In this document: positions 38,060-54,755 of the stretch, in pieces
Layout: the number at the start of each line of letters is the position of its first letter
Position numbering within the stretch: position 1 is the stretch's first letter
Assembly (NCBI GenBank): GCA_900095875.1
Contig: LT608311.1
Location: 1,426,001 to 1,490,000, forward strand
DNA: 64,000 bases
Reading direction: 5' to 3'
Source: Caecibacter massiliensis
Lineage (GTDB): Bacteria; Bacillota; Negativicutes; Veillonellales; Megasphaeraceae
Position numbers and translations under genes: made by a program
The notes under the pieces: generated by a model
Seen by the model: the letters and a program-made list of their open reading frames with translations, nothing else
Told to the model about the DNA's origin: nothing
Database searches by the model: none

Positions 38060-39208
38060 ATGAAAATTCAATCGATAGAATTATTTAAGGTACCACCCCG
38101 CTGGCTCTTTTTAAAGATTACGACTGACACAGGGCTATCAGGATGGGGGGAACCTGTTATTGAAGGACGAGCTGATACGGTAGCGGCTGCTGTTACGGAA
38201 TTGGAAGAGTACCTTATCGGCAAAGAGGCAGGGCGGATTGAAGACTTGTGGAATGTATTGTACCGCGCTGGCTTTTATCGTGGCGGTCCTGTCCTGATGA
38301 GTGCCATTTCCGGTATTGAACAAGCGTTGTGGGATATTAAGGGCAAAGCCCTGGGCGTGCCCGTATACGAGCTCCTGGGCGGCGTATGCCACGATAAAAT
38401 GAAAGTATACTGCTGGATTGGCGGCGATCAGCCCGACGAAGTGCTGCAGGCGGCAAAAGAAAAATACGAACAGGGATACCGGGCTGTTAAGATGAACGGT
38501 GTTCCCAAGGTAGGTTGGATCCAGAACAACCGACAGATTGATGAAGCCGTAGCCCGTGTGGCATCTATCCGGGAAGCATTCGGGTACGATATGGATATTG
38601 CCGTCGATTTCCATGGCCGTGTCCATAAACCACTGGCTTTTACGCTCATGAAAGAACTGGAACCGTACCGTCTCCTTTTCGTCGAAGAACCGGTCCTTTG
38701 TGAAAATGAAGAAATCTTCCCCATGCTGCGGCAGCAGTTCTCTACGCCCATTGCTACAGGGGAACGGAATTATACCCGCTGGGGATTCAAGCAGATGCTG
38801 GCCCGGGGCGGTGTCGATTATATCCAGCCCGATCCCTGCCATTGCGGGGGAATCCTGGAAACGAAGAAGATTGCGGCTATGGCAGAAGCCTACGATGTAG
38901 CACTGGCTCCTCACTGCCCGCTGGGGCCGATTGCCCTTGCGGTGGCACTGCAGATTGATTTCTGCACATATAATGCGGTCATTCAGGAACAAAGCCTGGG
39001 AATCCATTATAATCAGGGATCTGACCTGCTTGATTATCTGAAAGATCCGTCCGTATTTATCTATCATCAGGGATATGTCAATCTTCTGACAAAACCAGGG
39101 CTGGGAATCGAAATAGACGAAGCAAAGGTACGGGCTGCTGCAGCCGTGGGACATCATTGGAAGAATCCCGTATGGCGCGATGAGACGGGTACCGTATTGG
39201 AATGGTAG
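38060..39208 (+). CDS. dgoD: D-galactonate dehydratase
   Basis: 382 residues, the exact length of E. coli DgoD and similar along its whole length. An enolase-superfamily enzyme that converts D-galactonate to 2-keto-3-deoxygalactonate. Conserved pieces: PPRWLFLKI at the start, WGEPVIEGRA, FYRGGPVLMSAISG, VDFHGRVHKPLA with metal ligand Asp, FVEEPV and TGERN with the other ligands, and LAPHCPLGPIALA with the catalytic His. No DgoA, DgoK or DgoT homologue is adjacent, so its partners must lie elsewhere. Confidence 0.93.
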   Translation: MKIQSIELFKVPPRWLFLKITTDTGLSGWGEPVIEGRADTVAAAVTELEEYLIGKEAGRIEDLWNVLYRAGFYRGGPVLMSAISGIEQALWDIKGKALGVPVYELLGGVCHDKMKVYCWIGGDQPDEVLQAAKEKYEQGYRAVKMNGVPKVGWIQNNRQIDEAVARVASIREAFGYDMDIAVDFHGRVHKPLAFTLMKELEPYRLLFVEEPVLCENEEIFPMLRQQFSTPIATGERNYTRWGFKQMLARGGVDYIQPDPCHCGGILETKKIAAMAEAYDVALAPHCPLGPIALAVALQIDFCTYNAVIQEQSLGIHYNQGSDLLDYLKDPSVFIYHQGYVNLLTKPGLGIEIDEAKVRAAAAVGHHWKNPVWRDETGTVLEW

Positions 39209-39418: not shown

Positions 39419-40294
39419 ATGCTAGATTTTCGTATTCATACGTTTTTGTGTGTCTGCCGCCATATGAACTATACCAAGGCTGCAGCAGAGCTGCATATCA
39501 CACAGCCGGCTGTCTCACAGCACATCCGCTACCTGGAAAATGAGTACCATGCCAAATTATTCGATTATACGGGCAAGCACCTCATTCTGACACAGGCCGG
39601 ACATATCCTTCTGGATGCAGCAGCCACTATCCGGCATGATGATCTCATCCTGAAGGAAAAACTGCAGGAACTCAGGCGCAGTACGAAAATCGTTTCCTTT
39701 GGTGCGACCCATACAATAGGCGAGTTTATGATTGTGGATAAACTGGCACAGTATCTGAGGGAAAATCAGGAAGTCCTTTTGCGGTTGGAAATCGCTGATA
39801 CGGAGCAGTTATTGCAGGAAATTAATGATGGTAAAATCGACTTTGCCATCGTCGAAGGATTTTTTGAACAGAAACAATACGAAACTATGCTGTTTTCTAA
39901 AGAACCACTCATTGCCGTATGCGGTCCGGAATTCGATGTTCCCGATGAAGTAGAGCTGACCGATCTCTTGCTAAAACGCCTTTGCGTCCGAGAACGAGGA
40001 TCCGGCTCACGGGATCTTTTGGAACGGACTTTGGCCGAATACAGCCTGTCGCTGGAAGATTTTCCATACCGGGCGGAAATTGGCAGTCCTCAGACCATCA
40101 AGGCGTTGGTACACTGCAATGCGGGATTCTCGTTTTCCTATGAGAAATCGGTGCGTGATGAATTAGCCGCAGGTACGCTTCGTAAGATTCATATCCGCAA
40201 TTTTACAGCCGAACATTCCTTTACGTTCTTATGGCGTAAGGGAAGTATGTATGGCAATACGTTCCGCGGCATGTTTGAAGCACTGAAAGATTAG
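39419..40294 (+). CDS. LysR-family transcriptional regulator
   Basis: 291 residues. The N-terminal winged helix-turn-helix reads FLCVCRHMNYTKAAAELHITQPAVSQHI; the rest is a periplasmic-binding-protein-like sensor (from about residue 90). It lies in the same direction as, and only 14 bp before, the Fe-S scaffold-like gene, so it is probably part of that operon rather than divergently placed as most LysR genes are. It presumably controls the operon in response to a small molecule. Confidence 0.9.
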   Translation: MLDFRIHTFLCVCRHMNYTKAAAELHITQPAVSQHIRYLENEYHAKLFDYTGKHLILTQAGHILLDAAATIRHDDLILKEKLQELRRSTKIVSFGATHTIGEFMIVDKLAQYLRENQEVLLRLEIADTEQLLQEINDGKIDFAIVEGFFEQKQYETMLFSKEPLIAVCGPEFDVPDEVELTDLLLKRLCVRERGSGSRDLLERTLAEYSLSLEDFPYRAEIGSPQTIKALVHCNAGFSFSYEKSVRDELAAGTLRKIHIRNFTAEHSFTFLWRKGSMYGNTFRGMFEALKD

Positions 40295-40308
40295 AAAGGA
40301 TGAATAAC

Positions 40309-41001
40309 ATGATATATTCAACAGAAGTCAAGAATATGTGCCCCGTTACTAAAGGTGCATATCATGGACCGGCCCCGATTCCCGAAGAAGGCGAATGGGT
40401 ACAGGTCAAAGAAATTAAGGATATCAGCGGTCTTACTCATGGTGTAGGCTGGTGCGCTCCCCAACAGGGAGCCTGCAAGCTGACCCTCAATGTCAAAGAC
40501 GGTATCATTGAAGAAGCTCTCGTAGAAACGATTGGTTGTTCCGGTATGACCCATTCTGCCGCCATGGCATCGGAAATACTGCCGGGAAAGACTCTTTTGG
40601 AAGCGCTCAATACGGATCTGGTCTGCGATGCTATCAACGTTGCCATGCGCCAGTTGTTCCTCCAGATCGTGTATGGCCGCAGCCAGACGGCTTTTTCTGA
40701 AGGCGGATTGCCTATCGGCGCCAGCCTGGATGATCTGGGAAAAGGTATGCGCAGCCAGACCGGGACTATGTTTGGCACAAAAGCAAAAGGGACACGTTAT
40801 CTGGAAATGACCGAAGGATATGTTACCCGTATGGCCCTGGATGAAGAAAATCAGGTCATTGGATACGAATTTATCCACCTTGGCAAAATGATGGACGCCA
40901 TTAAAAAGGGCGTAGAACCAGCTAAAGCCATGGAAGATGCTAAAGGTCATTATGGCCGTTTTGAAGAAGCTGCTTCGTATATTGATCCGAGACAGCAATA
41001 G
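40309..41001 (+). CDS. IscU/NifU-like iron-sulfur cluster scaffold-family protein
   Basis: 230 residues. The middle region aligns with IscU: VGWCAPQQGACKLTLNVKDG, then LVETIGCSGMTHSA and LPGKTLLEAL correspond to the parts around IscU Cys37 and Cys63, and Cys106 in TDLVCDAIN may be the third ligand. Five cysteines are at 11, 49, 56, 77 and 106. Compared with IscU it has about 40 extra N-terminal residues and a long C-terminal part. No iscS or sufS is adjacent, so it may be a specialised carrier for its neighbour rather than a general scaffold. Start 40309 is chosen because the AAAGGA at 40295-40300 fits it and not ATG 40300. Confidence 0.8.
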   Translation: MIYSTEVKNMCPVTKGAYHGPAPIPEEGEWVQVKEIKDISGLTHGVGWCAPQQGACKLTLNVKDGIIEEALVETIGCSGMTHSAAMASEILPGKTLLEALNTDLVCDAINVAMRQLFLQIVYGRSQTAFSEGGLPIGASLDDLGKGMRSQTGTMFGTKAKGTRYLEMTEGYVTRMALDEENQVIGYEFIHLGKMMDAIKKGVEPAKAMEDAKGHYGRFEEAASYIDPRQQ

Positions 41002-41014
41002 GAGGAACCTACAG

Positions 41015-42025
41015 ATGGAATTATTCGAAAGTTATGACAGAAGAATAGATAAAATCCTCGGCGTGCTGAAAGAATACGGCATTAAAAGCGTAGAAGAATG
41101 CCGTGATATCTGCCAGAATGCCGGCATTGATCCGTATCAGACCGTCAAGGAAATCCAGCCCATCGCCTTTGAAAATGCCGGCTGGGCATATACCGTAGGG
41201 GCGGCCATCGCCATCAGGAAGAATTGCCGTACGGCTGTTGATGCGGCTAAAGCCATCGGCATCGGCCTGCAGGCTTTCTGCATTCCCGGATCCGTCGCCG
41301 AAGACCGCAAAGTAGGGCGGGGCCATGGTAATCTGGCATCTATGCTGCTTCAGGACAGCACACAGTGCTTCTGCTTCCTGGCCGGCCATGAATCTTTTGC
41401 CGCCGCTGAAGGAGCTATCGGTATTGTCCGCAATGCCAATAAAGCGCGCAAAGTGCCACTTCGCGTTATCCTGAACGGCCTGGGTAAAGACGCGGCCCAG
41501 ATTATTTCCCGTATCAACGGCTTTACTTATGTACAGACCCAGTTTGACTATAAAACGGGAGAACTGCACATTGTCCGGGAAATTTCCTATTCCAAAGGCG
41601 AACGTTCTGCTGTCCGCTGCTTCGGTGCCGATGACGTACGTGAAGGCGTGGCTATCATGCATCATGAAGGCGTTGATGTTTCTATCACGGGGAACTCGAC
41701 GAACCCGACCCGCTTCCAGCATCCCGTTGCAGGTACGTATAAGAAAGAATGCATCGAAATGGGTAAGAAATACTTCTCCGTTGCATCTGGTGGTGGCACA
41801 GGCCGTACACTCCATCCAGATAACATGGCTGCCGGCCCAGCTTCTTACGGCATGACCGATACGATGGGCCGTATGCACAGCGATGCCCAGTTCGCTGGCT
41901 CTTCGTCCGTACCGGCTCACGTAGAAATGATGGGCTTCCTTGGCATGGGCAACAACCCCATGGTTGGCGCATCCGTAGCCGTAGCTGTCGCCGTAGAAGG
42001 TGCTGCCAAAGCAGGAAAATTCTGA
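41015..42025 (+). CDS. GGGtGRT-family protein of unknown function
   Basis: 336 residues, soluble, without signal peptide. The family is named after the motif GGGTGRT, here residues 259-265 within VASGGGTGRTLHPDN. Other conserved-looking pieces are GRGHGNLASMLLQDSTQCFCFLAGHESFAAAEGA, INGFTYVQTQFDYKTGE, TGNSTNPTRFQHPVAGTYKKEC and a Gly/Ala-rich end (MGFLGMGNNPMVGASVAVAVAVEGAAKAG). It starts 13 bp after the scaffold-like gene with GGAGGAA upstream, and a terminator follows; I recall the two genes being adjacent in other anaerobic Firmicutes. Whether it binds a cluster, nucleotide or cofactor is unknown. Confidence 0.8.
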   Translation: MELFESYDRRIDKILGVLKEYGIKSVEECRDICQNAGIDPYQTVKEIQPIAFENAGWAYTVGAAIAIRKNCRTAVDAAKAIGIGLQAFCIPGSVAEDRKVGRGHGNLASMLLQDSTQCFCFLAGHESFAAAEGAIGIVRNANKARKVPLRVILNGLGKDAAQIISRINGFTYVQTQFDYKTGELHIVREISYSKGERSAVRCFGADDVREGVAIMHHEGVDVSITGNSTNPTRFQHPVAGTYKKECIEMGKKYFSVASGGGTGRTLHPDNMAAGPASYGMTDTMGRMHSDAQFAGSSSVPAHVEMMGFLGMGNNPMVGASVAVAVAVEGAAKAGKF

Positions 42026-42051
42026 TTTATCGTAAATGATGACTCAAATGA

Positions 42052-42100
42052 ACAGGACTACCGACGAAGTCAGGTACACTTCGTTAGTAGTCCTGTTTTT
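42052..42100 (+). terminator. Terminator of the LysR/scaffold/GGGtGRT operon
   Basis: A 19-base arm (42052-42070) pairs with 42077-42095 with two non-Watson-Crick positions, then TTTTT. Confidence 0.85.
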
Positions 42101-48398: not shown

Positions 48399-49340
48399 TC
48401 AAGTATTTTCTAAGAGACGTTTTGCAGTAAATTGATCGGTAATTAACACATTGGTGTACCCACCCTTTATAGCTGCCAGAATGGAACGAACTTTGGCAGC
48501 ACCACCGGCAATCAGAATGCTGTATTCTTTATTGTGGAGATACTCTAAATCAATGCCGACTGTCCGGTCATTAAATTCAGGACAAGCGATGTTTCCATTT
48601 TCATCAATAAAACGAGAACAAATATCGCCGACAGAGTGCTTCTTTAGAAAAGCCTGTTCATCTGTATTAGCATATCCTAAACGGAAAAAGAGCGCTTTAT
48701 CACGAGTGGTACCAACACTGAAAAGGGCAATATTAGCATGATTTCCTAAATTTAAGACCCGGTTGATATGACGATCCTTGTAAACCATCTCTTTTACTTT
48801 TTTAGAATCAAAAATAACAGGTAAAGGTAAGTATTGGGCAATTGTTTCATAGTTTTTAGAAAAATTGTTTAAAATTTCATTGGCATATGTTTCACACACT
48901 GAAAGTGTAATGGCGCCTTCTAATTGAACTATTTGGGCACCTAATAGTGGTTTAGGTTTCAAATAGTGAGATACGCTGCGCATCGTAGTACCCCAACCGA
49001 CGCCAATTATGTCACCATCATGAATGATTTTATTTAAATATTCAGCGGCTTCTTTACCAATGTAATTTTTAATTTCTTCTTCATCGTCAATGGGGGAATT
49101 GGCAATACATACGTGCTTTAAATTAAATTTTGCTGCTATTTTTTGAGATAGTTCGCCCCTGTCTTCGATGGGGTCGTAGATTTCTATTCGAACAAAACCA
49201 TGAGTTTTAGCATAATGCAGCAATCGGGATACCGAAGGGCGGGATAAATTTAATTCTTTGGCAATATCAGTTTGACTATAGTCAGATTGATAATATAATT
49301 TAGCAGCAGTAATTGCCAAGCGGTCTTTTTTCATTATCAT
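48399..49340 (-). CDS. SorC/DeoR-type sugar-binding transcriptional regulator
   Basis: 313 residues. N-terminal helix-turn-helix (AAKLYYQSDYSQTDIAKELNLSRPSVSRLL) followed by the SorC sugar-phosphate-binding domain (DIIGVGWGTTMRSV, GTTRDKALFF, and AGGAAKVRSILAAIKGGYTNVLITD at the end). It is divergent from the phosphodiesterase/GlpA-like operon and likely represses it until a phosphorylated inducer binds. Base composition is much richer in A+T than neighbouring genes. Start 49340 follows AAGGTGAAGG; the frame extends to 49376. Confidence 0.9.
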   Translation of the reverse strand: MIMKKDRLAITAAKLYYQSDYSQTDIAKELNLSRPSVSRLLHYAKTHGFVRIEIYDPIEDRGELSQKIAAKFNLKHVCIANSPIDDEEEIKNYIGKEAAEYLNKIIHDGDIIGVGWGTTMRSVSHYLKPKPLLGAQIVQLEGAITLSVCETYANEILNNFSKNYETIAQYLPLPVIFDSKKVKEMVYKDRHINRVLNLGNHANIALFSVGTTRDKALFFRLGYANTDEQAFLKKHSVGDICSRFIDENGNIACPEFNDRTVGIDLEYLHNKEYSILIAGGAAKVRSILAAIKGGYTNVLITDQFTAKRLLENT

Positions 49341-49395
49341 AGCCTTCACCTTATCCTTTTTGATGAAACAATGCAAATTATGCTACTTTATTTTA

Positions 49396-49465
49396 TTATC
49401 GCTAATGAAATGATAAAAAGCAAGATAAATTAGAAATTTTGTTCAAAACATGCAAGATAATTAGG
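49396..49465. promoter_or_regulatory. Repeated candidate operators next to the SorC-type gene
   Basis: GCAAGATAAATTAG (49420) and GCAAGATAATTAGG (49452) are direct repeats starting 32 bp apart, three helical turns. Close by, TTATC and GATAA arms form a dyad (about 49396-49416). They are candidate sites for the SorC-type regulator. Confidence 0.5.
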
Positions 49466-49543
49466 AAAATTTTTTCATAAAAATACATAAATGAATGATT
49501 AGATAGATTCTTATATCAAAAATGAAAAAATGTAAATAAAGTA

Positions 49544-49572
49544 TTGAAATAAATTTCTAGCGAACTTATAAT
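49544..49572 (+). promoter_or_regulatory. Sigma-70 promoter of the phosphodiesterase/GlpA-like operon
   Basis: TTGAAA (49544-49549) and TATAAT (49567-49572) with a 17-bp spacer, about 85 bp before the first gene. Confidence 0.75.
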
Positions 49573-49657
49573 GAGACTATGAACAGCGTATGAACTACTT
49601 TTTTCATTGTATTGCAGTGTAAGATTTGTAAAAAAAACCAAGGAGTGTGACAGTAGT

Positions 49658-50530
49658 ATGAAAATTTTCCAGATATCGGACTTTCATTTACGGGGAGATG
49701 GCAAACTTTCCTTTTATAAGGCTGATACCAATAAGGCAATGAAGCAGACGATTGATTATTTTGACAGTCTTAAAGAATACGAACTTCCTGACTTTTTCGT
49801 TGCAACGGGAGACTTATCGGAGGGAGGAACTAGAAAAGGATACGAAATAATGAGAGAAGGACTTAGAAGTCTTCCACGGCCTTGTTATATTGTTCCTGGT
49901 AATCATGACAAGCGGGCTTATTATTTAGATATGTTTGATAAAGAAGTACCCGTAAAAGAAGATATCCGTCCATTCATTTGTTATACCATTGATGACAGGC
50001 CCATACGTGTCATTGTTATTGATACGACGAAACCCGATTGTCATTCGGGAGGATTAAGTAAAGAAGTTGCAGATTGGCTGGAAAAGAAAATTGTAGAATA
50101 TCCAGATAAACCTACCTTAGTTTTCACGCATCATGTTCCATTTAAAACAGGACTACCGGCTATGGATGAAGGATTTGAAGGAGCAGACAAACTTTCTGAA
50201 ATTTTACATCTCCATTCTAATGTCCGTCTTTGTTGTGGCCATATGCATGTAGGTATTGTCACTGTATGGCGTGGTATTACATGTGTTACTTGTCCTTCTA
50301 TTTCTATGCCAATTGAAGTAGATTTCCGGACGAAATCAGACCCATATGTGACACAACAAGAGAAAGAAAATGATTTCAAAGGTGGAGGAGACCGGTTCTT
50401 TCTTGGAAATCCGGGATATTTGATTCATAATCTTCAAGGCAGCCGGATAAATACGTATGTCATGACGATTCCTGCCGGAGCTGATTATTCTGGACCGTAT
50501 CCGTTCAAATACTATAAGGGAGAAATATAA
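49658..50530 (+). CDS. Calcineurin-like phosphodiesterase (GpdQ/CpdA type)
   Basis: 290 residues, cytoplasmic. Class III cyclic-nucleotide/glycerophosphodiesterase motifs in order: ISDFHL, ATGDLSEGG, VPGNHDKR, VFTHHVPF and CCGHMHVG. Members such as GpdQ hydrolyse glycerophosphodiesters to glycerol-3-phosphate. Being first in an operon with a carrier and a GlpA-like dehydrogenase, a GpdQ-type role is more likely than cAMP hydrolysis; this is inference. ATG 49658 follows AAGGAGTG. Confidence 0.85.
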   Translation: MKIFQISDFHLRGDGKLSFYKADTNKAMKQTIDYFDSLKEYELPDFFVATGDLSEGGTRKGYEIMREGLRSLPRPCYIVPGNHDKRAYYLDMFDKEVPVKEDIRPFICYTIDDRPIRVIVIDTTKPDCHSGGLSKEVADWLEKKIVEYPDKPTLVFTHHVPFKTGLPAMDEGFEGADKLSEILHLHSNVRLCCGHMHVGIVTVWRGITCVTCPSISMPIEVDFRTKSDPYVTQQEKENDFKGGGDRFFLGNPGYLIHNLQGSRINTYVMTIPAGADYSGPYPFKYYKGEI

Positions 50531-50543
50531 GGGGAGTGGCGTT

Positions 50544-51866
50544 ATGGGTGAGCAGATCAAGGCACAGAGAAGTTTACGAAAAATTGCTGGCGTTACATTG
50601 TATGAAAGTGCTGTACAATGGTATTGTTTCCTTCTTTATGGTACGGCGGCAGGTACGGTATTTAATAAAGTATTCTTTTCCGTTACGGGTGATGAAATTA
50701 CAGCACTCATTATGTCCTATATGTCATTTGCTATCGGGTACATAGCAGGACCTTTTGGGGCCGTGTTTTTCGGACAAGTCGGTGATAAAAGAGGACGTAA
50801 GTTTACCATGTACGTTTCTTTGATGATGATGGGGATTTCAACGTCTATCATAGGCTTTTTACCACCGGCGGCAACGGCTGGTGTTTGGATTGTCATCGTT
50901 TTGCAAATCATGCGCCTGGCGCAATGTTTTGGTCGCGGCGGAACCTGGGGTGGTGCGATCCTTTTAGCATATGAAAATGTTCCGGAAAACAGGCGTAATT
51001 TTTATGCCTGCATTCCTCAGATAGGACTGCCTATCGGATTAGGACTGTCCTCTATTTTTTTATTAGTGCCGACCTGGTTTTTAGATGAATCAGCCTTTTT
51101 CAGTTGGGGTTGGAGAATTTCTTTCCTGGCAGCGATTATCCTTACTATTATTGCCGTTTTGTTAAAAGGGCATATGATGGAAACAGAGGATTTTAAAAAG
51201 GCTCAGGCTAAATTAGAAGAACAGGAAAGAGAAGGGAAAAAACAAAAAGTGGGATTTATTCCAATGGTTAAAGGATATTGGAAAACCTTATTGCTTGGCT
51301 GTGGTACCCGCTGGGTAGATGGAACTTTTTATAATATATTTATTGTCTGGATTTTGTCTTATTGTATTGGCTGGCTGGGTATGCCCTTGTATGAAACGTA
51401 TTTGATTACTATTATAGCCTGTATTTTTAAAATACCATTTACGCTGTTTGGTGGTTGGTGTGCACAACGGTTTGGTACTACCACTACATTTGTCATTGGT
51501 GGACTGGCATCGGCATTTCTCAGTATTCCTACTCTGAAAGTTATTGAATGGAGTCATGGCGATCTCCTCATTACTATGATTGGAATCGTGATTGGCTGGA
51601 GTATTGCCTATAATCTTATCTGGGCTGTATTAGGATCGCTTTGGTCCTCCTATTTTGAAACAGAAGTACGGTATTCAGGTATTTCCTTTGTATACCATGT
51701 TCCCAGCTTTATCGTTGCGGGTATTGTGCCTGCTGTTTGTACGTATCTCATTAGTTATGGTAATGGTGATACCATTTATGTAGGGATTTATTCTACCGTT
51801 GTTGCTCTTATCAGTGTGGCTTGTGCCCTCATCTTAAAACGGCGCTATATGGCTGGAAAACGGTAG
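50544..51866 (+). CDS. MFS transporter, metabolite:H+ symporter family
   Basis: 440 residues, 12 predicted helices with a basic/acidic central loop (about 215-235). The early segments GYIAGPFGAVFFGQVGDKRGRK and MRLAQCFGRGGTWGGAIL correspond to the metabolite:H+ symporter branch (ProP, ShiA, KgtP relatives). It starts 13 bp after the phosphodiesterase. It may carry the glycerophosphodiester, glycerol-3-phosphate or another organic acid. Substrate not determined. Confidence 0.85.
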   Translation: MGEQIKAQRSLRKIAGVTLYESAVQWYCFLLYGTAAGTVFNKVFFSVTGDEITALIMSYMSFAIGYIAGPFGAVFFGQVGDKRGRKFTMYVSLMMMGISTSIIGFLPPAATAGVWIVIVLQIMRLAQCFGRGGTWGGAILLAYENVPENRRNFYACIPQIGLPIGLGLSSIFLLVPTWFLDESAFFSWGWRISFLAAIILTIIAVLLKGHMMETEDFKKAQAKLEEQEREGKKQKVGFIPMVKGYWKTLLLGCGTRWVDGTFYNIFIVWILSYCIGWLGMPLYETYLITIIACIFKIPFTLFGGWCAQRFGTTTTFVIGGLASAFLSIPTLKVIEWSHGDLLITMIGIVIGWSIAYNLIWAVLGSLWSSYFETEVRYSGISFVYHVPSFIVAGIVPAVCTYLISYGNGDTIYVGIYSTVVALISVACALILKRRYMAGKR

Positions 51867-52027
51867 AGACAGCGGATACGTATGGCTTTCTTCATGAATC
51901 GTGCGTACCTGATGGGTCTTTGTCATAATATAGGGTATCACCGACTCATAATAAGAAATTTTGAAAAAAATAATAATGAAATTATTTTCCGAAGATAAGA
52001 GCGATTAAAATTAGCGAGGTCATGAGT

Positions 52028-53494
52028 ATGACAAAAAAAGCAGATGTAGTCATTATTGGCGGGGGTATTACTGGTGCGGCAGTATTATATGAGTTAGCAA
52101 AGTATAAACTACGTATAATTCTTGTTGAACAGGAACCTGATCTGGCAACTGGCACGACAAAAGCAAATAGTGCGATTTTACATGCTGGATATGATGCGTT
52201 GCCAGGTTCCTTAAAAGCACAGATGAATGTAGCTGGTAATGCTTTGTATCATAAACTCAAAGAAGAACTGCATTTGGAAATCAAGTGGACCGGATCATTG
52301 GTAGTTGCTACCAATGATGAGCAATTGAAGATTCTTTATGATTTAAAACGGAGAGGGGAGCGTAATGGCGTTCCCAGCTTAGATATTTGGGATGGGAAAG
52401 CTGTTCATCAATCACAACCCAATTTAAGCTCTGAGGTACTGGGAGCCCTTTGGGCACCGACGGCAGGTATATGTTGGCCCTTTGATCTCTGTCTTGCTTT
52501 CGCAGAAAATGCTGTTTTAAACGGAGCAGAAATTATACGGGAGTGCAGAGTTACAGGTTTTGATGTAGATAGCGGTACGATACGGATGGTACATACTAAT
52601 AAAGGGAATATTGAAACGACATGCGTTGTGAATGCAGCTGGTGTTCATGCGGATGATATTAGTTCATTGGCTGGTGACGATACCTTTAGAATTTTTCCAC
52701 GTAAAGGTGAATATATTTTATTTGATCAAAAGGTGCAAAATGCTCTTGTTTCAATTCCCGTATTTCCTACGCCTGACAAAATGGGAAAAGGCATTATGGT
52801 GGCTCCTACTATTCATGGGAACGTATTTATAGGGCCTAATGCACAAAATATGGATGATAAGGATAATACGGCGTTCACCAATGAAGGTATGAATGAAATT
52901 ATTGAGAAGGCCCAGACTATAGTACCCTGCATTCCTCTTACTCAAGCTATAACGGAGTTTGCTGGTATACGTGCTGTTTCCGATACAAATGATTTTATTT
53001 TGGGGCCATCATTGAAAGTTAACGGACTGTTTCATGCAGCGGGAATTCAGTCGCCGGGACTTACAGCAGCACCAGCTATTGCGCAGTTTTTGGTTAAAAA
53101 AATTATTGATAAATTAAAGCCAGAATATAATACTACATGGAAAGCTGGAAGACCACGGCATATCTATTTTAAAAATCTGGATTATGATGAGCAACAGAAT
53201 TTAATTAAAGAAAATCCGTCATTTGGGCGGGTCATATGCCGTTGCGAAACCGTTACGGAAGGTGAAATTATCGATGCTATACATCGACCGGTAGGAGCCC
53301 GGACTGTTGATGGCGTAAAACGAAGAACTCGAGCCGGCATGGGCCGGTGTCAGGGAGGTTTTTGTGGTCCCAGGATTATACAAATATTATCCCGTGAGCT
53401 GCATATTCCCATTCCGGAAGTTCGTAAAGAAATGTGCCATTCATATATGTACTTTGAAAAGAAAAGTACAAAGAAGGTGATATGTGATGATTAA
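52028..53494 (+). CDS. FAD-dependent glycerol-3-phosphate dehydrogenase-like protein with BFD domain
   Basis: 488 residues. N-terminal FAD motif IIGGGITGAAVLYELAKY, a DAO-type catalytic domain (to about residue 370), and a C-terminal BFD-like [2Fe-2S] domain with CRCETVTEGEI and GMGRCQGGFCGPR, as in GlpA of the anaerobic GlpABC enzyme. It would oxidise glycerol-3-phosphate to dihydroxyacetone phosphate, or a related 2-hydroxy acid. The next two genes are the usual partners. ATG 52028 is preferred over 52022 because of the distance to GAGGT. It overlaps the next gene by eight bases. Confidence 0.88.
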   Translation: MTKKADVVIIGGGITGAAVLYELAKYKLRIILVEQEPDLATGTTKANSAILHAGYDALPGSLKAQMNVAGNALYHKLKEELHLEIKWTGSLVVATNDEQLKILYDLKRRGERNGVPSLDIWDGKAVHQSQPNLSSEVLGALWAPTAGICWPFDLCLAFAENAVLNGAEIIRECRVTGFDVDSGTIRMVHTNKGNIETTCVVNAAGVHADDISSLAGDDTFRIFPRKGEYILFDQKVQNALVSIPVFPTPDKMGKGIMVAPTIHGNVFIGPNAQNMDDKDNTAFTNEGMNEIIEKAQTIVPCIPLTQAITEFAGIRAVSDTNDFILGPSLKVNGLFHAAGIQSPGLTAAPAIAQFLVKKIIDKLKPEYNTTWKAGRPRHIYFKNLDYDEQQNLIKENPSFGRVICRCETVTEGEIIDAIHRPVGARTVDGVKRRTRAGMGRCQGGFCGPRIIQILSRELHIPIPEVRKEMCHSYMYFEKKSTKKVICDD

Positions 53495-54755
53495 ACAAAT
53501 ATATGATGTTGTCATTATTGGCGGTGGACCGGCAGGATTAACCGCTGCCTATAGTGCCTGGAAAAACGGAGCAAAAGAAATATTAATTCTGGAACGTGAT
53601 TGGGAAGTTGGTGGAATTTTACAACAATGTATCCATAATGGATTTGGAATCCACCATTTTCATGAAGAACTGACTGGTCCGGGATATGCACAGCGATGTT
53701 ATGAGCTAATTAAAGAAAAAAAGGAAATAGAGATTTCGTGTGATACGATGGTATTAAAAATTAATGCCGATAAAATTGTGACTGCAGTCAATCCACACAA
53801 TGGAATATTCCATATGCAAGGAAGGACTATTGTTTTGGCTATGGGATGCCGTGAAAGAACCCGGGGGGCAATCCAGACACCTGGTTATCGACCAGCTGGA
53901 ATTTATACTGCTGGAGCGGCACAACGTATGGTCAATATGGAGGGATACATACCGGGGAAAAATATAGTTATTCTTGGAAGTGGTGATATTGGACTGATTA
54001 TGGCACGGCGTATGACTTTGGAAGGCTGTCGTGTTCAGGCAGTAGTGGAGATATGTCCGTATTCTAATGGATTGACTAGAAATATGGTTCAATGCCTATA
54101 TGATTATAATATCCCGCTATATCTATCCCATACCATCGTTGCGATTCACGGAAAAGACCGTGTTAAGGGTATTACGTGTGCAAAAGTAGATGCATATAAG
54201 AAACCGATTCCAGGAACAGAATTTGACATAGCATGTGATACGGTGTTGTTATCGGTCGGATTAATCCCTGAAAATGAATTATCGAGTGAGGCCGGGATTA
54301 CATTAGACCCTATAACACATGGACCTATTGTCAATCAACACCGGGAAACGGATATTCCTGGAATATTTGCGGCGGGCAATGTCGTTCATGTACACGACAT
54401 GGTAGATTTTGTTTCTGAAGAAGCTGAAATTGCCGGTAAATATGCTGCGCTAAAAGCTCAGGGTAGGGTAACAGGTGGACTGGCTGATTTAAAAATAAGA
54501 ACAGATAATGACATTGGTACTTGTGTGCCACAGCATATTTGCATACAAAAGAATAATGAAATTATTACATTATTTATACGTGTACGCAGACCGATGAAAC
54601 ATGTACAGATTACCGTGAGAAATTCTGAAGAGGTATTATCAGAAAAACATATGTCTGCAGTCCGGCCAAGTGAGATGATATCTGTCAGTGTCAATTCCGG
54701 GAACATGAAGAGTCGTTATGAGGACTGGACTGTTTCCATCAGGGAGGGACTATGA
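53487..54755 (+). CDS. NAD(P)/FAD-dependent oxidoreductase, GlpA partner
   Basis: 422 residues. Pyridine nucleotide-disulphide-type fold: FAD motif VIIGGGPAGLTAAYSAW, NAD(P) motif VILGSGDIGLIMARRM near residue 150, and a second FAD segment GIFAAGNVVHVHDMVDFV. The last part is a separate small domain. In Clostridia, Treponema and Fusobacteria, proteins like this stand between a GlpA-like subunit and a DUF1667 protein and are thought to pass electrons. It overlaps both neighbours (8 and 4 bases). Confidence 0.88.
   Translation: MIKQIYDVVIIGGGPAGLTAAYSAWKNGAKEILILERDWEVGGILQQCIHNGFGIHHFHEELTGPGYAQRCYELIKEKKEIEISCDTMVLKINADKIVTAVNPHNGIFHMQGRTIVLAMGCRERTRGAIQTPGYRPAGIYTAGAAQRMVNMEGYIPGKNIVILGSGDIGLIMARRMTLEGCRVQAVVEICPYSNGLTRNMVQCLYDYNIPLYLSHTIVAIHGKDRVKGITCAKVDAYKKPIPGTEFDIACDTVLLSVGLIPENELSSEAGITLDPITHGPIVNQHRETDIPGIFAAGNVVHVHDMVDFVSEEAEIAGKYAALKAQGRVTGGLADLKIRTDNDIGTCVPQHICIQKNNEIITLFIRVRRPMKHVQITVRNSEEVLSEKHMSAVRPSEMISVSVNSGNMKSRYEDWTVSIREGL

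What the first reader, a model, noticed from the sequence alone, without database searches (positions are those of the whole stretch)
40309..42025. Scaffold-like Fe-S protein paired with a GGGtGRT-family protein under a same-strand LysR gene
The sequence shows two tightly linked genes (13 bp apart) after a LysR gene (14 bp before the first), ending in a terminator. The first aligns with IscU around its cluster cysteines but has extra N- and C-terminal parts. The second carries the GGGTGRT motif with a Gly/Ala-rich C-terminus, and I know of no function for it. No cysteine desulfurase, suf or isc gene is near. Inference: a dedicated cluster or cofactor delivery system in which the scaffold-like protein serves its partner. 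This is the best candidate here for an undescribed system.
Basis: partly seen in the sequence, partly recalled or inferred. Interest (0 to 1): 0.75.

Follow-up and report, generated by a model that had tools for sequence, protein, structure and literature searches.

The report
Likely iron-sulfur enolase of gut anaerobes
Two neighbouring genes of unknown function, shared by anaerobic bacteria of many kinds, look like the two halves of an unrecognised iron-dependent version of enolase, a core sugar-burning enzyme that puzzlingly appeared to be missing from some gut and rumen bacteria.

Summary
Observation confirmed: LysR (39419-40294), NifU/IscU-like (40309-41001) and GGGtGRT/PF14057 (41015-42025) genes, then a hairpin. 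The last two are an obligate pair: 10 of 10 PF14057 genomes among 199, 87 of 87 testable loci. LysR precedes the pair in 2 of 90.

"Delivery system" is probably wrong. I propose a two-subunit, Fe-S, fluoride-insensitive ALTERNATIVE ENOLASE. Evidence: (1) fluoride riboswitch upstream and crcB downstream in 3 of 10 pair genomes; (2) gpmI - pair - pyruvate kinase in one genome; (3) no canonical enolase in 20 of 49 pair-bearing genomes, against 7 of 189 pair-less; (4) published data: with low iron the pair falls and enolase rises in Clostridium pasteurianum and, less firmly, Bacteroides thetaiotaomicron; (5) three invariant cysteines. "Missing enolase" in rumen and gut bacteria is a published open problem.

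Against: no biochemistry; the 49 genomes were not a random draw, and three random samples combined show no significant association (p 0.085, or 0.18 by cut-off); the window's genome also keeps enolase.

The parts
40309..41001 (+). NifU/IscU-like subunit (proposed Fe-S subunit). Invariant cysteines C52, C80, C109 and near-invariant C59 (numbered from the ATG at 40300; subtract 3 for the 40309 start)
   Evidence: ORF; IscU fold; invariant Cys in 105/105, 105/105, 107/107 loci, C59 104/105
41015..42025 (+). GGGtGRT (PF14057) subunit, 336 aa (proposed substrate-binding/catalytic subunit)
   Evidence: PF14057 E 3e-193; 136 of 336 columns invariant in 104 loci
41789..41809 (+). GGGTGRT motif (residues 259-265), at the edge of the low-confidence stretch 260-297 of the monomer model and in the most conserved part of the protein
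   Evidence: sequence
40453..40455 (+). codon of invariant C52 of the NifU-like subunit (proposed cluster ligand)
40537..40539 (+). codon of invariant C80 (proposed cluster ligand; aligns with the second cluster Cys of IscU)
40624..40626 (+). codon of invariant C109 (proposed cluster ligand)
42050..42100 (+). terminator-like hairpin (42050-42098) with a run of five T (42096-42100)
   Evidence: -28.5 kcal/mol, z -7.0; not listed by the pattern scan
39419..40294 (+). LysR-type regulator, probably co-transcribed; seen before the pair only in this genus, not part of the general system
   Evidence: directly before the pair in L001 and L003 only, of 90 loci

Best explanation
The NifU-like and GGGtGRT proteins are the two subunits of an oxygen-labile, iron-dependent enolase that is not homologous to the known Mg-dependent enolase. 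Proposed mechanism (inferred): C52, C80 and C109 of the NifU-like subunit hold a [4Fe-4S] cluster with one iron left free, as in aconitase and the Fe-S L-serine dehydratases (recalled); 2-phosphoglycerate binds with its 3-hydroxyl (and carboxylate) on that iron and its phosphate in the Gly/Arg-rich loop around the GGGTGRT motif of the partner; an invariant base of the partner (K158, K243, K244 or a His) takes the C2 proton, and the iron draws off the hydroxyl, giving phosphoenolpyruvate. Without the Mg-fluoride-phosphate trap the enzyme would resist fluoride; because it needs iron it would be used when iron is plentiful, and the Mg enolase when it is scarce. Where the pair is present the classical enolase gene can be lost. 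Shown here: pairing, three invariant Cys, fluoride and glycolysis gene contexts, many pair genomes without enolase. The iron switch is published data reread. Inferred: the reaction, the cluster type, oxygen lability and the residues.
For: Pairing: 10 of 10 pair genomes, no full-length partner in the other 189; 87 of 87 testable loci. Fluoride riboswitch RF01734 on the same strand 60 and 63 bp upstream of the pair in two genomes and 823 bp upstream (one permease gene between) in a third, 3 of 10 pair genomes, with two crcB genes and a DUF190 gene just downstream in all three (L007 also by NCBIfam); crcB and DUF190 also near the pair in two deltaproteobacterial loci, one with a riboswitch-like hit upstream (45.3 bits). 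In the same sample a fluoride riboswitch lies 70 bp before a classical enolase match (G120). gpmI - pair - pyruvate kinase on one strand in L002, gpmI directly before the pair in L004 and L005 (one family). No canonical enolase (TIGR01060) in 20 of 49 pair genomes and in 3 of 10, one of them 100% complete, against 7 of 189 pair-less genomes. PGK is present in 47 of 48 enolase-less pair genomes and in 12 of 18 enolase-less pair-less ones, p 0.0012. Reciprocal iron response: C. pasteurianum GGGtGRT 7.1-fold higher with iron, enolase spots 4.1- and 4.8-fold higher without (early phase; PMC5395762); B. thetaiotaomicron pair -11 to -12.8, eno operon +2.0 to +7.7 (PMC10434189). Chicken-gut Bacteroidetes: low or no enolase in vivo while GGGtGRT is expressed (PMC11204068). 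Three invariant Cys.
Against: No activity has been measured. 101 of 122 pair genomes in one family, and the window's own genome, also have enolase. In that family enolase loss is not commoner with the pair (21 of 122 against 6 of 28, p 0.59); in Bacteroidales 4 of 36 against 5 of 162, p 0.06; the three random samples together give p 0.085. If genomes with only sub-cut-off eno matches also count as lacking it, the figures are 3 of 10 against 10 of 189, 4 of 36 against 8 of 162, and p 0.18 together. The 49 genomes were among the closest sequence relatives, not a random draw, and are related to each other. Some genomes with PGK have neither enolase nor pair (G083, G113, G254, G323 and five Bacteroidales), perhaps assembly gaps. 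The B. thetaiotaomicron eno entry is for a three-gene operon with q 0.144. One of two NifU-related spots of C. pasteurianum has an unclear row. The chicken-gut paper finds phosphoglycerate mutase low too and reads this as flux to serine. B. proteoclasticus extracts had only very low enolase activity (PMC2914790); whether that strain holds the pair was not tested. Riboswitch and gpmI contexts are found in few loci: of 87 loci searched with my model only L038 adds a strong riboswitch hit, and the window has none.
Confidence: 0.72

Rival explanations
1. One reading: the NifU-like protein is a scaffold that assembles an Fe-S cluster or related cofactor and delivers it to the GGGtGRT protein, which does something unknown.
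For: IscU fold, pairing, iron-replete expression in two published data sets.
Against: IscU Cys37/Asp39 positions not conserved in register; no invariant Cys in the partner; does not explain the fluoride operons, the gpmI-pyk context or the many pair genomes without enolase.
Confidence: 0.11
2. A two-subunit Fe-S enzyme of lower glycolysis other than enolase, for example one converting 2- or 3-phosphoglycerate by another route to pyruvate, so that enolase is bypassed rather than replaced.
For: Same contextual evidence; enolase loss would follow as well.
Against: gpmI and pyruvate kinase flank the pair in L002, leaving exactly the enolase step; pyruvate kinase needs PEP. One locus only.
Confidence: 0.1
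3. A fluoride- or iron-stress protein pair (for example iron or Fe-S storage) that happens to be frequent in anaerobes, some of which also lost enolase.
For: Fluoride riboswitch/crcB operons, iron-replete expression, no significant association of pair and enolase loss in the random samples taken together.
Against: Enzyme-like conservation (136 of 336 columns invariant) and glycolytic gene context; would not let a cell do without enolase.
Confidence: 0.07

Closest known systems
Classical enolase (phosphopyruvate hydratase, TIGR01060/PF00113)
   Same: Proposed reaction 2-phosphoglycerate to PEP; a classical enolase gene is also found behind a fluoride riboswitch (G120)
   Different: No match of either protein to enolase models at E 1; Fe-S instead of Mg (inferred); two subunits
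IscU/NifU/SufU scaffold proteins
   Same: Fold of residues 41-127 and a set of three cysteines
   Different: First Cys shifted and Asp39 without equivalent, extra N- and C-terminal parts, tied to PF14057, below the family cut-offs
[4Fe-4S] hydro-lyases such as aconitase and Fe-S L-serine dehydratase (recalled, not searched for)
   Same: Three-Cys pattern; elimination of an alpha proton and beta hydroxyl as in L-serine dehydratase (inferred)
   Different: No match to such models at E 1; the cluster would sit on a separate IscU-like subunit
Fluoride-resistance operons (crcB, DUF190, RF01734)
   Same: The pair sits inside such gene rows in three genomes and near crcB in two more loci
   Different: The other loci examined, including the window, show no such context

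Membership tests
GGGtGRT family PF14057 | Pfam model over its gathering score | tested here: met
   641.5 bits against 27
IscU/NifU scaffold family | PF01592 or TIGR03419/TIGR01999 over curated cut-off | tested here: not met
   20.7 against 22; 27 against 187.9; 21.9 against 192.4
IscU/NifU scaffold family | IscU fold | tested here: met
   best Z 8.8, 87 residues aligned, rmsd 3.0; model pLDDT only 67
IscU/NifU scaffold family | Cys37-Gly-Asp39 motif in register (residue roles recalled) | tested here: not met
   in the HMMER alignments IscU Cys37 falls on Gln56 and Asp39 on a gap; Cys52 and Cys59 flank it
Classical enolase | match to TIGR01060/PF00113 | tested here: not met
   no such match for either protein at E 1
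Enolase activity (EC 4.2.1.11) | dehydrates 2-phosphoglycerate to PEP | not testable with these tools
   contextual evidence only
[4Fe-4S] hydro-lyase type enzyme | three protein Cys ligands, one iron free | tested here: inconclusive
   three Cys invariant in 105-107 loci; cluster itself not observable
Fluoride-riboswitch regulon | RF01734 upstream of the operon | tested here: not met
   window: none at gathering score, none in G000; relatives: 3 of 10 pair genomes

The most novel reading that the evidence does not exclude
A second, non-homologous enolase exists: an oxygen-labile two-subunit Fe-S hydro-lyase (IscU-derived cluster subunit plus GGGtGRT subunit) spread over anaerobes of many phyla, switched against the Mg enolase by iron and used for fluoride tolerance, and it is the enzyme long missing from the glycolysis of Butyrivibrio, Oscillibacter and other enolase-negative gut bacteria.
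Probability: 0.7. Interest if true: 0.96.

Novelty: categorically new. Interest (0 to 1): 0.92.

Why it matters
[quoted passage not shown] its absence from a rumen bacterium was reported in 2010 (PMC2914790) and the gap was still called open in 2024 (PMC11187502). A named gene pair makes that question testable at once. If true, lower glycolysis in many gut and rumen bacteria can run on an iron-sulfur enzyme, which would link it to iron supply, oxygen and fluoride, and would give a function to a strongly conserved protein family, called highly expressed in chicken-gut anaerobes (PMC11204068), that has none.

Tried and rejected
Rejected or led nowhere: (a) function by fold: the GGGtGRT model (pLDDT 82.6) has no PDB match at E 0.001 or below and only Rossmann-like or other common arrangements up to Z 7.6; no enolase was among the rows shown, which excludes nothing. 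Sequence searches of the PDB gave no credible match. (b) A conserved third gene: none. Of 82 immediate same-strand neighbours of 100-650 aa I scanned 80 (left out: L001:1-771, the LysR, and L051:3450-4304); the commonest Pfam families occur 4 times. The widest neighbour cluster anywhere in the loci is a generic ABC ATPase, 15 of 90 loci at scattered places. (c) A riboswitch in the window: none. (d) LysR as a general partner: no. (e) Selenium link of the LysR: best NCBIfam match below cut-off (158.7 against 250). (f) Ideas of hydrogenase-cofactor maturation, selenium and iron storage were only thought about. (g) Published low enolase activity in B. proteoclasticus is explained only by inference (oxygen lability).

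Absence from print: searches in open-licence PMC papers (no bioRxiv, few subscription journals). One search listed 17 papers with the letters GGGtGRT, some of them plainly other uses of these letters; I saw passages of six and nothing of the other eleven beyond title and abstract start. Searches listed 20 of 2,549 and 20 of 26 papers, judged from the listing. Of 14 papers opened I saw found passages, none in full. "NifU" in the metaproteome papers may be another NifU.

Limits of counts: one search covered 50 of my 80 genome-contig loci (L041 not held); 30 were not examined. Genomes reached through loci carry no completeness value. In the 49, G244 (33-residue remnant), G237 (partial, below cut-off) and G199 (fragment at a contig end) count as having a match; by cut-off 22 of 49 lack enolase against 10 of 189. 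In one search G244 and G336 (contig-end fragment) count as enolase-less. PGK was checked only in genomes without enolase (57, 9) and in five Bacteroidales with weaker eno matches, which are not in the 12 of 18. In two of the 87 pairs (L036, L084) the NifU-like match is in two pieces, and in some it is cut by the contig end. The chance figure for riboswitch placement (about 1e-9) uses a rough site count and genome size and ignores relatedness.

Full report
What is there. The window holds a LysR gene (39419-40294), a NifU/IscU-like gene (40309-41001) and a GGGtGRT gene (41015-42025), all on the + strand with gaps of 14 and 13 bp, followed by a stable hairpin with a short T run. The second protein of the pair is a full PF14057 member (E 3e-193); the first reaches NifU_N only below its cut-off. 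The family consensus starts MIYS, so the true start is probably 40309; residue numbers below count from the ATG at 40300.

The pair is obligate as far as tested. Among 199 genomes of the phylum PF14057 occurs in 10, the window's own included. The full-length partner (334 to 526 bits) occurs in the same 10, directly upstream on the same strand in each, and in none of the other 189, whose best matches reach 29 bits and are short. Among 90 loci, 87 hold the partner; it is the immediate same-strand upstream gene in 86 and one ORF away in one (L083); in the other three the contig begins within 130 bp of the GGGtGRT gene. Record titles cover Clostridia, Bacteroidales, Spirochaetes, Succinivibrio relatives, deltaproteobacteria, Fibrobacteria, Victivallis, Akkermansia and Myxococcales. 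I found no third conserved gene, and a LysR gene directly precedes the pair in 2 of 90, both in the own genus. The sequence distances of the two proteins correlate (Pearson 0.76, Spearman 0.57, 104 loci).

What the proteins look like. 136 of 336 columns of GGGtGRT and 67 of 233 of the partner are invariant in 104 loci. The partner has the IscU fold over residues 41-127 (best Z 8.8, 87 residues, rmsd 3.0; model pLDDT 67). In the alignments IscU Cys37 falls on Gln56 and Asp39 on a gap, so it is not an ordinary scaffold. Its cysteines 52, 80 and 109 are invariant (105/105, 105/105, 107/107), C59 in 104/105. GGGtGRT has no invariant cysteine (C89, C118 and C202: 110 of 113 or 114) but invariant His, Lys, Arg, Asp and Asn. 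Its monomer model is confident except mainly for residues 228-232 and 260-297 and matches no solved fold well. Three invariant Cys on one subunit and a Gly/Arg-rich motif on the other is the pattern I would expect for a [4Fe-4S] enzyme with an open iron (inference; hydro-lyase chemistry recalled).

The fluoride clue. Rfam finds a fluoride riboswitch just upstream of the pair in L007 and L009 (20 loci). In the 199-genome sample, where 82 genomes have such a riboswitch, one lies 63, 60 and 823 bp upstream of the pair in G186, G125 and G089 (3 of 10 pair genomes; in G089 a TauE-like permease gene lies between), and two crcB genes plus a DUF190 gene follow in all three. L038 and L051 have crcB and DUF190 near the pair, L038 also a riboswitch-like hit upstream of that gene row (45.3 bits); it is the only strong hit that a model built from three of the riboswitches adds in 87 loci. 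By a rough estimate three such placements by chance have a probability near 1e-9. Fluoride poisons classical enolase (recalled). In the same sample G120 has a fluoride riboswitch 70 bp before a classical enolase match.

The glycolysis clue. In L002 the order on one strand is gpmI (phosphoglycerate mutase), NifU-like, GGGtGRT, pyruvate kinase; gpmI also directly precedes the pair in L004 and L005 (same family of genomes) and lies one ORF further upstream in L076 (the gpmI genes are cut by the locus ends, so L004 and L005 stay just below the model's cut-off). The pair sits where enolase would be expected.

The test. If the pair is an enolase, genomes with it can lose the classical gene. In the 199-genome sample 10 have no TIGR01060 match: 3 of the 10 pair genomes (G109 81%, G125 83%, G142 100% complete) and 7 of 189 others, p 0.009; three more pair-less genomes have only sub-cut-off matches (3 of 10 against 10 of 189, p 0.02). 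Of 49 further pair-bearing genomes 20 have none (50 of 80 loci asked, one not held). These include Oscillibacter valericigenes An890 and Oscillibacter sp. 1-3 and, among metagenome-assembled ones, Treponema and Anaerobiospirillum. Butyrivibrio fibrisolvens 16/4 keeps only a 33-residue remnant (not counted in the 20), in line with the truncated gene reported in PMC2914790. Control: phosphoglycerate kinase is present in 47 of 48 enolase-less pair genomes (B. fibrisolvens 16/4 included) and in 12 of 18 enolase-less pair-less ones, p 0.0012, so in pair genomes the loss is seldom explained by missing sequence or missing glycolysis.

Results that go the other way. In the family of B. fibrisolvens (150 genomes) the pair is frequent (122) and enolase loss is as common without it (6 of 28) as with it (21 of 122, p 0.59); in Bacteroidales (198) it is 4 of 36 with and 5 of 162 without (p 0.06), or 8 of 162 by cut-off (p 0.24). 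The three random samples together give an odds ratio of 1.8, p 0.085, or 1.6, p 0.18 by cut-off. So enrichment rests mainly on the phylum sample and on the 49 close relatives. Several pair-less, enolase-less genomes look fragmentary (G267 without PGK, G270 and G376 with PGK in pieces, G336 with eno at a contig end), but G083, G113, G254, G323 and the five Bacteroidales ones are not explained. Most pair genomes in the samples, and the window's, also have classical enolase.

Published data that fit. In Clostridium pasteurianum GGGtGRT is 7.1-fold (early) and 2.2-fold (late) higher with iron and one NifU-related spot 3.7- and 2.9-fold (a second spot has an unclear row), while the two enolase spots are 4.1/4.8-fold (early) and 4.0/1.8-fold (late) higher without iron (PMC5395762, table passages). 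In Bacteroides thetaiotaomicron BT0173-74 is listed at -12.8 to -11 at low iron, and a three-gene operon with eno at +2.0 to +7.7 but q 0.144 (PMC10434189, passages). In chicken-caecum Bacteroidetes phosphoglycerate mutase and enolase are low or absent while GGGtGRT and a NifU are expressed; the authors infer flux to serine, and the low mutase is not explained by my reading (PMC11204068, passages). In a rumen metaproteome GGGtGRT and NifU are named in one group with GAPDH, PEP carboxykinase and pyruvate phosphate dikinase (PMC7035244). None of the passages seen connects the pair with enolase.

The open question it would answer. B. proteoclasticus lacks enolase and showed very low activity (PMC2914790); O. 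[quoted passage not shown] enolase-negative strains are under 0.5% of isolates, a high proportion of them rumen Butyrivibrio, Prevotella and Lachnospiraceae, and a search for complementing functions gave no substantial insight (PMC6118326); the gap was still open in 2024 (PMC11187502) and extends to Endomicrobia, Treponematales and Bacteroidales symbionts, Saccharibacteria and others (PMC11257099). A complementing gene could not be found by comparing enolase-positive with enolase-negative Butyrivibrio if both carry it, which fits the frequency of the pair in that family. The pair was not looked up in B. proteoclasticus itself.

Verdict. Observation confirmed; delivery-system reading replaced by an iron-sulfur alternative enolase, confidence 0.72. 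Pairing, cysteines, gene contexts and the enolase-less pair genomes are shown by computation; reaction, cluster type, oxygen lability and catalytic residues are inferred.

Noticed in passing
L070 (G241); L022, L063, L078; L096/L104 and L100-L103: The 3' end of the GGGtGRT gene seems to be an attachment site for mobile elements: in G241 a full gene and a 3' fragment (residues 272-327) lie 24 kb apart on one strand, a tyrosine integrase is the next same-strand gene in four loci, and viral contigs L100-L104 match only at about residues 276-330.
   Followed up: partly
window 48399-54755: GC is 0.34-0.43 in this stretch, against about 0.44-0.55 elsewhere; it holds what look like a SorC-type regulator, a phosphoesterase, a transporter and two FAD-type oxidoreductases, perhaps an acquired glycerol-3-phosphate system (names by eye).
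   Followed up: no
window 38060-39208: What looks like an enolase-superfamily (mandelate racemase/galactonate dehydratase-like) gene lies before the LysR gene; by eye only, probably unrelated to the pair.
   Followed up: no
L008 3205-3978: A TauE/SafE-type permease lies between the fluoride riboswitch and the pair, so it may belong to the fluoride response.
   Followed up: partly
G332:C1:1347696-1348673: A second, lower-scoring full-length PF14057 copy (534 bits; the first has 634) in one genome.
   Followed up: no
loci L030, L040, L044, L080: The C_GCAxxG_C_C redox family (PF09719) is among the commonest immediate neighbours, 4 of 80 scanned (these four loci inferred from the cluster).
   Followed up: no
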